From positions 806,001 through 870,000 of the forward strand of contig NZ_AP017470.1 in assembly GCF_016592575.1 (NCBI RefSeq): a stretch of DNA of 64,000 nucleotides, given 5' to 3'. This document shows, in pieces, positions 6,003 through 61,023 of this stretch (its first letter is position 1; every line of letters starts with the position of its first letter). The translations under genes were made by a program, and so were the position numbers. The notes beneath the pieces were generated by a model, which saw only the letters and a list, made by a program, of their open reading frames with translations, was not told where the DNA came from and did no database searches. Source of the stretch: Thermotomaculum hydrothermale. GTDB lineage: Bacteria; Acidobacteriota; Holophagae; Thermotomaculales; Thermotomaculaceae.

Positions 6003-7736
6003 ATGGGAAAGTTTAAACTGAATTTAGTTGTTTTTCTGACAGTGACAATTCTTTTTTCACTTCCCACTTTCTCTCAAAACTTTGATTATGAGTTGCAAAA
6101 CTCTTTAACTCGTGTTTATTTAAATCCAGATATTAATCAAGAGGAAGACTTTAATATTTTTAGAAAAACATTCTTTGCGGAGGGTAATTCTTCTTTCAAT
6201 TACCTTTACGGAATATTAGACAAAAATAATGAAATTAAACAAAGGTATTCTCCCTTTTTTTATAAAGTAGACACCAGGCAGTTTGAAATTTATAAAACAA
6301 CTGTTGATAAAATGGTTAAGGATAGAAAATTTGTATCCGCATGGGTTTTTTCTATTGATACTCTTATAAATTACCTTTCCAATGTCAGTAATTTTCTCCC
6401 GTTTGTTTTAAATTGTATGTCAAAAACATACCTTGTAATTTTTTATTTTATTTTAATTTTAGGTGTTATATCTTTTTTAAGGTTTTTCAGGCTGTTGCTT
6501 TACGATGTTAGAAAACTTTTAGAAAAAAAAGGGTGGGATAATTCCCTTGCGCTTTACATAGCTTTTTTTGTAGTTGTGTTTTTACCTGTGTTTTTTACCA
6601 TTCATTTAAAGTTTTTGCCTGTTTACTGGTTGCTCTTATTCTTTATCTATTCAACTAAAAAAGAGAAAGTGATTACCTATTTTGCTATTGCTTTGTTAAT
6701 GATTGTAAGTTTTATAGGGGTATATCTAACTTCTTTTACAAAAAATGTTTATAAAAACAAGACTTTTTATTATGAAAGTTTAGTTGAACCTTTTTCAGGA
6801 ATTTCTAAAGACAAAAAAACCAGAAGCAATTTTGAAAATTTTGTAAAGGCAGTTTCTTTGTTAAGGCAGGGTAATTCTGTTGATAGTATAAAAGTCTTTA
6901 AAGAAATAGATTCAGATTCAAATCTTTATAAATATGCGTTAAACAATATAGGGGTCGCTTATATTTTTCTATCAAGACCAAAATTAGCGCTTAATTTTTT
7001 TGATGAAGCGGTAAAAAATGGTTTAAATTTTGAGCCAAATATCAACAAGTTTTATTTAAACTCCAAGTTGTATAACATTGTTGAATCTGAAGAGGCTTTA
7101 AAGTCTGCTTATTCTTCCAACCCTTTAAAAACTTCTTTGTGGTTGAGGTTGAATATTAAAGAGCCATTCCCTCAAATTTCAGTTCCATCTTTTAATGAAA
7201 TACTATTCCTTTTTCTTAAAGAATTTTCTTTTTCAAAATCTGTCCACTCACTGAAAATTATTGTCTTCTTGTTATGTTTATTGATTTTTTTAATAATTAT
7301 TCATTTTTTCTCCAAAGACATTTCTGTAACAAAAGGTTGCATAAAATGTGGGACGCCATTTAAGGTTTTTGAATCCCAGAATGATAAATTGTGTACTCAA
7401 TGTGCTTTGTTAAGTAAAAATAAAGGAGATATTTCAAGTGATTTAAAGGAAATAAAAAGAAGAGAAGTAAGGTTGTATTTAACTATAAAGAGATTTTTTG
7501 AAGTAGGATTAGGATTAATTTTTCCAGGGTTCTATAATATTTTTGTCTTACAAAAAGTGTTTTCTGGTTTCTTTATATTTTTGGTTTTCTTTGTTTTATT
7601 GTTGGATTCCTTAAATGCTTATAAAATTACGCATAACTTTTACGTAACAGCACCATTATTTGCAATGGTGTTGATGGTATATCTGATTAACCTGATTAAT
7701 GTTTTCTTTGAGAGAGGGGAAGACTCATGGCTTTAA
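6003..7736 (+). CDS. Polytopic membrane protein with internal zinc ribbon
   Basis: A 577-aa protein not matched to a known family. It starts with a signal-peptide-like segment, then a short polar region, about four membrane helices (residues 135-250), a soluble stretch of about 150 residues with helical-hairpin character reminiscent of TPR units (LYKYALNNIGVAYIFLSRPK), another helix near 415-437, a zinc-ribbon-like module with two CxxC pairs at about 446-449 and 464-467, and two or three final helices. GGGGAG lies 12 nt before the ATG. It overlaps the PATAN gene by 10 nt, so the two are made together. Function is unknown; a membrane-bound partner of the PATAN protein is likely. Confidence 0.6.
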   Translation: MGKFKLNLVVFLTVTILFSLPTFSQNFDYELQNSLTRVYLNPDINQEEDFNIFRKTFFAEGNSSFNYLYGILDKNNEIKQRYSPFFYKVDTRQFEIYKTTVDKMVKDRKFVSAWVFSIDTLINYLSNVSNFLPFVLNCMSKTYLVIFYFILILGVISFLRFFRLLLYDVRKLLEKKGWDNSLALYIAFFVVVFLPVFFTIHLKFLPVYWLLLFFIYSTKKEKVITYFAIALLMIVSFIGVYLTSFTKNVYKNKTFYYESLVEPFSGISKDKKTRSNFENFVKAVSLLRQGNSVDSIKVFKEIDSDSNLYKYALNNIGVAYIFLSRPKLALNFFDEAVKNGLNFEPNINKFYLNSKLYNIVESEEALKSAYSSNPLKTSLWLRLNIKEPFPQISVPSFNEILFLFLKEFSFSKSVHSLKIIVFLLCLLIFLIIIHFFSKDISVTKGCIKCGTPFKVFESQNDKLCTQCALLSKNKGDISSDLKEIKRREVRLYLTIKRFFEVGLGLIFPGFYNIFVLQKVFSGFFIFLVFFVLLLDSLNAYKITHNFYVTAPLFAMVLMVYLINLINVFFERGEDSWL

Positions 7737-57582: not shown

Positions 57583-57633
57583 TTTCTCGTTTCTTTTTCT
57601 TTTTTTCTCTCATATAATCGTGATGAGGTGGGT

Positions 57634-58686
57634 ATGTTTAAGATTGAGTATATGCAGAGGGCTTTATACCTTGCGGAAAGGGGTAAAGGCTTTGTTTCTC
57701 CAAATCCCCTTGTTGGATGCGTAATTGTTAAAGACGGCAAAGTTATAGGAGAAGGGTGGCATAAGAGATTTGGGGAGGCGCATGCTGAGGTAAATGCGGT
57801 TTTAGATGCAGAGAGCAAAGGCTTTTCTGTTGAAAATTCAGATGTTTATGTAACTTTAGAGCCGTGCAGCCACTTTGGAAAAACTCCCCCGTGTGCAAAT
57901 ATGCTTGCAGAAAAGAAGGTTAAGCGGGTTTTTATTGCAACCCTTGACCCAAATCCCCTTGTTGCAGGAAGGGGGGTTGAGATTTTAAAGAGTGCGGGAA
58001 TTGAGGTTTTTCACGGATTTTTAGAAAATGAGGCAAAAAACTTGAATAAGTTTTTCTTTTACCACATAAAGAACAAATTGCCTTATGTTATTTTAAAGCT
58101 TGCAACAACCCTTGACGGCTTTATTGGTGATATTGATGGAAATTCAAAGTGGATTACAAATGAGAAAAGCAGAAAAAAGGTTCATGAATTGAGGAGTGAG
58201 GTTGACGCTGTTTTAGTTGGAAGTGGCACAGTTCAGGCCGATAACCCATCTTTGACTGTAAGGCTTGTTGAAGGGAGAAATCCAAAAAAGGTTGTGCTTG
58301 ATTTTAGCGGAAGGCTAAACGGTGATTATAATGTTTTTGATGAAAACTGTTTCCTTGTTGTTTTAAAAGACAGGTTAACAGAAGAGAAAAGGGAATTTTA
58401 CTTAAAAAAGAGGGTTAAAATTGTTGAAGTTGAGAATAAAGATATTAAACTTGTTCTTGAAGCCCTTTACAAAAACAATATTGCTTCAATTTTGGTTGAA
58501 GGGGGAAGCAGGGTTGCCGGAATGTTTGTTGAAAGCGGTTTTATAAACGAGTTAATGCTTTTTGTTGCGCCAAAGATTTTGGGAGAGGGCAAGAGGGCTT
58601 TTTCCATTTCAAAAGTTTTTAAAATGGATAATCCCCTTGAATTAAACGGGGAAGACGGCTTTTTTAGTTTTAAATTCAGGAGTTGA
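57634..58686 (+). CDS. ribD: Riboflavin biosynthesis deaminase/reductase RibD
   Basis: ATG 57634 follows GAGG by 5 nt; a GTG at 57628 overlaps that site. The 350-aa product joins an N-terminal deaminase (zinc ligands in HAEVNAV and LEPCSHFGKTPPCANML) to a C-terminal reductase (ILKLATTLDGFIGD; VDAVLVGSGTVQADNPSLTVR; LVEGGSRVAGMFVE). It carries out two steps from the GTP-derived pyrimidine to the ribitylaminouracil phosphate. TATAAT at 57613-57618 may be its -10 box. No FMN riboswitch is visible in the 51-nt gap upstream. Confidence 0.95.
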   Translation: MFKIEYMQRALYLAERGKGFVSPNPLVGCVIVKDGKVIGEGWHKRFGEAHAEVNAVLDAESKGFSVENSDVYVTLEPCSHFGKTPPCANMLAEKKVKRVFIATLDPNPLVAGRGVEILKSAGIEVFHGFLENEAKNLNKFFFYHIKNKLPYVILKLATTLDGFIGDIDGNSKWITNEKSRKKVHELRSEVDAVLVGSGTVQADNPSLTVRLVEGRNPKKVVLDFSGRLNGDYNVFDENCFLVVLKDRLTEEKREFYLKKRVKIVEVENKDIKLVLEALYKNNIASILVEGGSRVAGMFVESGFINELMLFVAPKILGEGKRAFSISKVFKMDNPLELNGEDGFFSFKFRS

Positions 58687-58687
58687 T

Positions 58688-59301
58688 ATGTTTACAGGCA
58701 TTGTGGAAGAGGTTGGAAAGGTTGTTTCAATTAAAACAAAGGGAGATGGAAGAATAATCTCAATTGAGGGGAAAAGGGTTTTTGAGGATTTGAAGGTTGA
58801 AGACAGCATTGCAGTTGACGGGGTTTGTCAGACTGTTTTTGAGATAAATGGAAATGTTTTCAGCGTCTTTGCAATGAATGAAACTTTAAAAAAACAACAT
58901 TGAAGAATTTAAAAACAGGGGATAGGGTAAACCTGGAAAGGGCTTTAACATTGTCAACAAGGTTAGGGGGACACCTCGTTCAGGGTCATGTTGATTGCGT
59001 TGGAATTGTTGAAGGGGTAAAAAAGCAATCAAACACCTATTTAATTGACATAAGAATTTCAAAAGAGTTTGAAAAGTTCACTGTTTTGCACGGTTCAGTT
59101 GCAATAAACGGTGTTTCCCTTACAATTGCAAGGAAAAGCGGGGTTATTATAACCGTGTCTTTAATCCCATATACCCTTGAAAACACTTCGCTTAAATTTT
59201 TAAGAAGGGGAAGTGCTGTAAATATTGAAACAGACATAGTTGGCAAATACCTTTATCAATTTTTTAAAAATCAAAAAACTTACGACAATTTAAGTGAATA
59301 A
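58688..59301 (+). CDS. ribE: Riboflavin synthase split by a frameshift at an A7 run
   Basis: Two frames together spell one riboflavin synthase of about 203 aa. The first (58688-58903) begins MFTGIVEEVGKV and stops at TGA just after NETLKK; the second continues TTLKNLKTGDRVNLERAL to the end, with LGGHLVQGHVD and VSLIPYTLENT. The frames meet at AAAAAAA (58888-58894): a slip of one base back, or one extra A, restores the expected ETLKKTTLKNL sequence. The break lies within the N-terminal barrel, so two separate functional parts are unlikely. A TTG at 58900 overlaps the stop (TTGA) and could restart translation. ribE is essential for flavin synthesis and sits in an otherwise intact operon. Confidence 0.9.
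58888..58903 (+). other. Candidate -1 slippery site in ribE
   Basis: In the first frame the codons are TTA AAA AAA CAA CAT TGA. The A-AAA-AAA heptamer is in the right phase for -1 slippage, and the stop comes three codons later. A downstream stimulating structure was not found by eye. Confidence 0.55.
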
Positions 59302-59312
59302 GTGTTCACTTT

Positions 59313-59321
59313 TGATATAAT
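59313..59321 (+). promoter_or_regulatory. Extended -10 promoter before ribBA
   Basis: TGATATAAT (59313-59321) is a full extended -10 box. Just before it AAGTGAA/TTCACTT (59292-59298 with 59305-59311) forms a 7-bp stem across the ribE stop. ribBA may therefore be read from its own start as well as from ribD. Confidence 0.5.
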
Positions 59322-59350
59322 GAGTTTGAATAAACTTTGGAGTGTATTTT

Positions 59351-60544
59351 ATGAGAATTTCAATAGAAGAGGCAATTGAAAGGTTTAAAAGGGGCGAGTT
59401 TTTAATTGTTGTTGACGATGAGGACAGGGAAAACGAAGGGGATTTTATTATTGCGTCTGAAAAAATTTCCCCTGAAGCGATAAACTTTATGGCAAAAGAG
59501 GGCAGGGGGCTTATCTGCGTTGCAATTACTCAGGAGATTGCTGATAGGCTTGATTTAAAGCCAATGGCTCAAAAGAACACTGCAAGGCACTCAACAGCTT
59601 TTACAGAAAGCGTTGATGCGCTTGAAGGGACGACGACTGGTATTTCTGCGCAGGACAGGGCAATTACAGTTAAGGTTTTAATTGACGAAAATTCAAAACC
59701 GGAGGATTTGGCAAGGCCTGGCCATATTTTCCCCCTTATAGCAAAGAAAGGCGGGGTGTTAAAGAGGGCAGGGCATACCGAGGCTTCAGTTGACCTTGCA
59801 AGGCTTGCTGGATTAAAGCCGAGCGGTGTTTTGTGCGAGATTATGAACGATGACGGCACAATGGCAAGGATGCCTGAGTTGGAGAAGATTTCAGAAAAAT
59901 TCAACATCCCCATAATCACAATTGCAGATTTGATTGAATACAGGAGAAGGTTTGAAAAATTAGTTCACAGGGTTGCCGAGGTTGACTTTCCAAACAAATA
60001 CGGCCACTTTAAACTGATTTATTACGATTGTGATATTGATCCTAAAGATTACCTTGCAATTGTTAAGGAATTTGACCCTGAAAAGCCTGTTTTGGTTAGA
60101 ATGCACTCTGAGTGTAAAACTGGAGATGCATTGGGCTCATTAAGGTGTGATTGCGGTGACCAGTTGGCAGAGGCATTGAGAATGATTGAAAAAGAAGGCG
60201 GTGTTGTTGTTTACCTTCCCCATGAGGGCAGGGGAATTGGATTGAGGAACAAAATACTTGCCTATAAACTTCAGGACGAGGGGCACGACACTGTTGAGGC
60301 AAACTGCAAATTGGGATTTAAACCTGATTTAAGGGATTACGGAATAGGCGCTCAAATTTTAAAAGATTTGGGGATTAAAAAAATAAGGCTAATGACAAAC
60401 AATCCAACAAAGGTAATTGCATTAAACGGGTATGACCTTGAGATTGTGGAGAGGGTGCCTATTGAAATAAAGCCTAATCCTGCAAATTACAAATATTTAA
60501 AAACAAAAAAGGAAAAAATGGGGCATAAACTATCAATTGATTGA
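59351..60544 (+). CDS. ribBA: Bifunctional DHBP synthase / GTP cyclohydrolase II
   Basis: ATG 59351 has GGAG 8 nt upstream (59339-59342). The 397-aa protein joins RibB ([14 protein letters not shown]; the active-site RHSTAFT and [11 protein letters not shown] segments) to RibA ([23 protein letters not shown] with the zinc cysteines; [14 protein letters not shown]). Both halves keep their catalytic residues. It supplies both starting materials of riboflavin: dihydroxybutanone phosphate and the GTP-derived pyrimidine. ribH follows after 14 nt. Confidence 0.96.
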
Positions 60545-60558
60545 TTCGGAGGATTTTT

Positions 60559-61023
60559 ATGAAGGTTAACGAAGGCAAGTTAAATGCCAGCGGCAAAAGG
60601 TTTGCAATAGTTGTTTCAAGGTTTAACGATTTTATTTCAACAAGGCTTTTAGACGGGGCTTTAGATTGCTTGAAGAGGCATCACTGCGAAGAGAACGATA
60701 TTGAGATTACCTGGGTGCCCGGAAGTTTTGAAATTCCATTAACAGCAAAGGTTTTGGCAGAGAAGGGAAATTTTGACGCTATTATCTGCCTTGGTGCAGT
60801 TATAAGGGGAGAAACCCCTCACTTTGACTATGTATCAGCGGAGGTTTCAAAGGGGATTGCAAATGTTGGGTTGCAAACTGAAAAACCTGTTATTTTTGGA
60901 ATAATTACGGCAGACACTGTTGAGCAGGCAATTGACAGGGCAGGAACAAAGGCTGGAAACAAGGGCTGGGCTGCAGCATTAACTGCAATAGAGATGGCTG
61001 ATTTAATGTCTAAAATTGGATAA
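60559..61023 (+). CDS. ribH: 6,7-dimethyl-8-ribityllumazine synthase
   Basis: ATG 60559 follows CGGAGG by 6 nt; an earlier TTG at 60541 precedes that site. The 154-aa protein has [40 protein letters not shown] with the catalytic His, and [17 protein letters not shown]. It forms the substrate of riboflavin synthase, often in icosahedral shells. Its stop shares one base with the btuF start, so the transporter genes are coupled to the riboflavin operon. Confidence 0.97.

What the first reader, a model, noticed from the sequence alone, without database searches (positions are those of the whole stretch)
58688..59301. ribE is split at an A7 run that forms a -1 slippery heptamer
Seen: the two frames join into a complete riboflavin synthase if the ribosome slips back one base, or the polymerase adds one A, at 58888-58894. 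The heptamer A-AAA-AAA is in the correct phase and the zero-frame stop comes three codons later. Known: dnaX uses A-AAA-AAG and some low-GC bacteria decode A-runs by polymerase slippage. Inference: this is programmed recoding of an essential gene, or an assembly error in a homopolymer. A true knockout is unlikely since ribD, ribBA and ribH are intact.
Basis: partly seen in the sequence, partly recalled or inferred. Interest (0 to 1): 0.62.

Follow-up and report, generated by a model that had tools for sequence, protein, structure and literature searches.

The report
ribE frameshift: probable homopolymer sequence error
The vitamin B2 gene ribE is interrupted by one missing A in a run of A's, most likely because that run was miscounted when the genome was sequenced, and the evidence is against a special frame-switching mechanism.

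Summary
ribE is split at 58888-58894 (A7): a 71-aa N-terminal half and a C-terminal half in the -1 frame together match riboflavin synthase end to end. It is the only ribE in the 2.32-Mb single-contig genome. The interpretation "programmed recoding" is not supported. The same-genus relative G004 reads TTG-AAA-AAA-ACA through this site; here the leucine codon is TTA, so an intact frame would need eight A's and seven are recorded. None of five family relatives has the heptamer in phase, and all are intact. In-phase A_AAA_AAA is ordinary in this genome (223 in 404 kb of genes, 258 expected) and A7 runs are not avoided. Avoidance starts at nine A's, so A7 is not effectively slippery for ribosome or polymerase. 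There is no downstream hairpin. In a 464-kb sample (20% of the genome) I found about seven other genes broken by single-base indels in both directions, some in short runs no slippage could rescue; recJ, maeB and two signalling genes are intact in same-genus relatives. The best reading is a homopolymer-length error in the assembly. A real single-base deletion in the strain is second. The family's genuine recoding candidate is a conserved A10 in dnaX.

The parts
58688..58903 (+). N-terminal half of ribE (riboflavin synthase), 71 aa, zero frame
   Evidence: TIGR00187 positions 1-70, E 3.8e-19
58888..58894 (+). A7 run at the frame break; eight A's would keep the frame
   Evidence: sequence; alignment with intact relatives
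58882..59301 (+). C-terminal half of ribE in the -1 frame; its only nearby start is a TTG overlapping the stop of the first half
   Evidence: TIGR00187 positions 74-200, E 6.9e-38; PF00677 over cut-off
57628..58686 (+). ribD, intact, same operon
   Evidence: TIGR00326 1.8e-105
59342..60544 (+). ribBA, intact, same operon
   Evidence: PRK09311 3.1e-182
60541..61023 (+). ribH, intact, same operon
   Evidence: TIGR00114 3.5e-55

Best explanation
The real gene is most likely an ordinary intact riboflavin synthase whose homopolymer has eight A's. The deposited sequence records seven, a run-length undercount left in the assembly. The gene needs no special decoding. Shown: the frame break, its place in a run, intact relatives, and other single-base breaks across the genome. 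Inferred: that the break is in the record and not in the organism.
For: Relatives: G004 (same genus; protein halves 83% and 79% identical) reads TTG AAA AAA ACA ACA TTG; this genome has TTA in place of TTG, so the expected run is A8. Of 55 genomes with ribE among this one and its 60 relatives, only this one is interrupted. Differences from G004 sit mainly at third codon positions on both sides of the break (7/4/20 and 24/11/60), so both halves were under selection until very recently. Genome-wide: the 464-kb sample holds about seven other single-base breaks, both surplus and missing bases: recJ, maeB, receiver-Ser/Thr kinase, MCP/solute-binding protein, Mutator transposase, a kinase-like gene, a TPR membrane protein. 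Same-genus orthologues of recJ, maeB, the Ser/Thr kinase and the MCP gene are uninterrupted. Only one candidate in-frame stop was found. An excess of indels, mostly in runs, is the profile of consensus error. PMC3711429 expects singleton frameshifts with protein homologues to be sequencing errors rather than true indels.
Against: No reads could be inspected and the sequencing platform of this genome was not found. One broken gene (TonB-type receptor) lacks 13 bases relative to relatives, which is not a homopolymer error. The control MAG G004 is not free of breaks: one likely single-base break in 322 kb against eight in 464 kb, a modest contrast.
Confidence: 0.76

Rival explanations
1. The deletion is real: replication slippage in an A8 run removed one A in the sequenced strain, recently inactivating ribE. 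The strain survives on riboflavin from a rich medium, or the culture is mixed at this run.
For: A synonymous difference makes an eight-A run at this site, and such runs are mutable. A 13-base deletion in a receptor gene suggests that real knockouts are present. No decay beyond the single base fits a very recent event. Two same-genus MAGs (G001, G003) show none of ribB, ribE or ribH, so riboflavin auxotrophy in the genus cannot be excluded, although these are incomplete assemblies.
Against: ribD, ribBA and ribH are intact. Single-base breaks far outnumber nonsense breaks in the sample, which points to sequencing. ribE is needed unless riboflavin is imported, and no importer was looked for.
Confidence: 0.17
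2. Programmed -1 ribosomal frameshifting at A-AAA-AAA fuses the two halves and may regulate RibE level.
For: The heptamer is in phase, the stop is near, and the -1 product is complete.
Against: No family relative has the heptamer in phase. The downstream RNA is not more structured than shuffles (z -0.38). In-phase A_AAA_AAA occurs 223 times in 404 kb of genes against 258 expected, so the organism does not treat it as dangerous. In E. [quoted passage not shown]).
Confidence: 0.03
3. RNA polymerase slippage on the A7 run adds an A in some transcripts and rescues ribE, as described for endosymbiont and IS genes.
For: The run is at the right place and one added A restores the frame.
Against: In this genome A7 runs in genes are more common than expected (336 against 287) and A8 near expectation (90 against 107), while runs of nine or more are strongly avoided (6 against 50), so slippage seems to matter from nine, the commonest threshold (PMC1088944). 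Breaks in short runs elsewhere, such as maeB, could not be rescued this way.
Confidence: 0.04

Closest known systems
Homopolymer run-length errors in assemblies (singleton 'Error' class of frameshifted genes, PMC3711429)
   Same: isolated single-base frame break at a homopolymer in a conserved gene, intact in relatives, with other such breaks in the genome
   Different: reads not available, so the error is inferred
dnaX -1 ribosomal frameshift (E. coli, A_AAA_AAG)
   Same: an A-rich heptamer in -1 phase
   Different: in dnaX the shifted product is the shorter one; here the longer product needs the shift, the heptamer is A_AAA_AAA, there is no stimulatory hairpin and no conservation
Thermus thermophilus dnaX and 'pseudo pseudogene' transcriptional slippage (runs of nine A's; PMC1088944)
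   Same: an A run where one added base restores or changes a frame
   Different: seven A's, below the avoidance threshold of this genome

Membership tests
Riboflavin synthase (RibE, TIGR00187/PF00677) | two lumazine-binding domains covering the whole family profile | tested here: met
   the two halves match consecutive profile parts, 1-70 and 74-200 of 207
Programmed -1 ribosomal frameshifting | slippery heptamer X_XXY_YYZ in phase | tested here: met
   A_AAA_AAA at 58888-58894, but in-phase copies are common in this genome
Programmed -1 ribosomal frameshifting | conserved shift site in orthologues | tested here: not met
   0 of 5 family relatives carry it in phase; all have an intact zero frame
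Programmed -1 ribosomal frameshifting | downstream stimulatory structure | tested here: not met
   81 nt after the run fold at z -0.38
Programmed transcriptional slippage | homopolymer long enough to slip in this organism | tested here: not met
   strong avoidance in genes only for runs of nine or more A's; A7 is over-represented. Indirect: slippage itself was not measured
Homopolymer sequencing error | other single-base breaks, mostly at runs, in genes intact in close relatives | tested here: met
   recJ, maeB, receiver-kinase and MCP/SBP genes
Homopolymer sequencing error | reads show a different run length | not testable with these tools
   no raw reads held

The most novel reading that the evidence does not exclude
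The seven A's are real and an essential biosynthetic enzyme is made only by recoding at an unusually short A run in a free-living bacterium.
Probability: 0.05. Interest if true: 0.5.

Novelty: not a real feature. Interest (0 to 1): 0.1.

Why it matters
It is a caution. In an AT-rich genome with hundreds of in-phase A_AAA_AAA heptamers, a base lost from an A run easily leaves something that looks like a slippery site. The genome's own run-length statistics and the conservation of the site decide the question. The same statistics point to a real slippage candidate, the conserved A10 in dnaX. Users of this genome should treat its split genes (ribE, recJ, maeB and others) as suspect annotation, not as metabolic gaps.

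Tried and rejected
A second intact ribE elsewhere: none. Stimulatory RNA structure: none. RNA families in the window: none at gathering score. Frameshift calls beside a credible start codon, or between unrelated genes (overlapping genes such as folD and its neighbour, thiL, tgt/yajC), were discarded as ordinary gene overlaps. A sample-to-sample BLAST gave mostly shadow-frame noise; ribE was the only clear frame break in it. holB and a tadA-like gene, flagged with a stop inside, proved to be whole reading frames. The genome-contig scan with ribBA returned no close relative. A search of plasmid records found nothing. Papers on the presumed species gave no sequencing platform.

Full report
What is there. 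The window lies in a 2,317,141-base single-contig genome. Its kinship pattern and size suggest Thermotomaculum hydrothermale or a very close relative in the Holophagae; this naming is inference. The riboflavin operon ribD-ribE-ribBA-ribH runs from 57628 to 61023 on the + strand. ribD, ribBA and ribH are intact. ribE is in two pieces: 58688-58903 in the zero frame and 58882-59301 in the -1 frame, meeting at an A7 run at 58888-58894. The pieces match consecutive parts of the riboflavin synthase family. No second ribE exists in the assembly.

Comparison with relatives. Of 55 genomes that hold ribE among this one and its 60 relatives, only this one is interrupted. The same-genus genome G004 encodes an intact 204-aa protein and reads ACA TTG AAA AAA ACA ACA TTG at the site. 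Here the corresponding bases are ACT TTA followed by a run that leaves the frame one base short. The A in place of G in the leucine codon lengthens the expected run from seven to eight A's, and seven are recorded. Four same-family genomes have no such run. The slippery heptamer is thus not conserved. Differences from G004 are concentrated at third codon positions before and after the join (7/4/20 and 24/11/60), so the protein was under selection over its whole length.

Is A7 slippery in this organism? I tested this with 391 genes (404 kb) from the window and 20 spread 20-kb stretches, shuffling synonymous codons within genes. A7 runs are over-represented (336 observed, 287 expected) and A8 near expectation (90 against 107). 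Runs of nine or more A's are strongly avoided (6 against 50), and T runs of nine or more are absent (0 against 21). In-phase A_AAA_AAA is near expectation (223 against 258). So the length at which slippage appears to be selected against is about nine, as in a large proportion of bacteria (PMC1088944), and the heptamer in ribE is one of hundreds. RNA after the run is not unusually structured. In E. [quoted passage not shown]

Is the break isolated? A frameshift-aware coding model was run over the same 464 kb. After removing ordinary gene overlaps, about seven other genes are broken by one base: recJ (one base too many in an A run), maeB (one short in a short G/A stretch), a receiver-Ser/Thr kinase gene, an MCP/solute-binding protein gene (one short in a T run), a Mutator transposase, a small kinase-like gene (one too many in an A run) and a TPR membrane protein. 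The first four are uninterrupted in same-genus relatives (alignments). For the MCP/SBP gene and the transposase, consecutive family matches show the two pieces belong together. The last two rest on the coding model and reading alone. A TonB-type receptor gene lacks 13 bases relative to relatives and looks like a genuine deletion. Only one candidate in-frame stop was found. The control genome G004 gave one likely single-base break in 322 kb against eight including ribE in 464 kb here; the contrast is modest in statistical terms. Both directions of error, a preference for runs and few nonsense breaks fit residual consensus errors. Breaks outside long runs cannot be explained by slippage.

Positive control. 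This lineage does have a credible slippage site. dnaX carries ten A's just after its conserved domain in this genome and in six relatives with a complete dnaX, and both shifted frames stop within two to five codons. It is the only A10 inside a gene in the sample. The credible recoding site of this family is therefore long-run and conserved; ribE is neither.

Verdict. Sequence error is the best explanation (0.76), a real recent deletion the second (0.17), and recoding of either kind is unlikely (together about 0.07). No raw reads could be inspected; they would settle it.

Noticed in passing
L118 minus strand (G000:C1:1151388-1152428:-), codon ~374; also L192, L193, L195, L196, L197, L198: dnaX carries an A10 run just after its conserved N-terminal part in this genome and in six relatives with a complete dnaX; both shifted frames stop within 2-5 codons. 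Probable conserved tau/gamma slippage site of the Thermus type, in a lineage where A runs of nine or more are otherwise strongly avoided.
   Followed up: partly
L132:19508-20000 (G000:C1:759580-761182): recJ is split by one surplus base in an A run; intact in G004 and G005.
   Followed up: yes
L134:59-2262 (about G000:C1:1040059-1042262): maeB (malic enzyme-phosphotransacetylase) is split by one missing base in a short G/A stretch; intact in G001, G002 and G004.
   Followed up: yes
L126:726-3688: TonB-type receptor gene lacks 13 bases relative to three same-genus relatives, between short direct repeats; looks like a genuine deletion.
   Followed up: partly
L139 minus strand, around position 6752 of the reverse complement: An in-frame TGA interrupts a 570-aa plus 144-aa reading, the only candidate nonsense break in the 464-kb sample.
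   Followed up: no
G001, G003 (same-genus MAGs): Neither shows ribB, ribE or ribH, and no ribD match passes the family cut-off; could be assembly gaps or riboflavin auxotrophy in part of the genus.
   Followed up: partly
391 genes of the 464-kb sample: In-phase A_AAA_AAG heptamers are 1.6 times more common than under synonymous shuffling (165 against 103), while A_AAA_AAA is near expectation.
   Followed up: no
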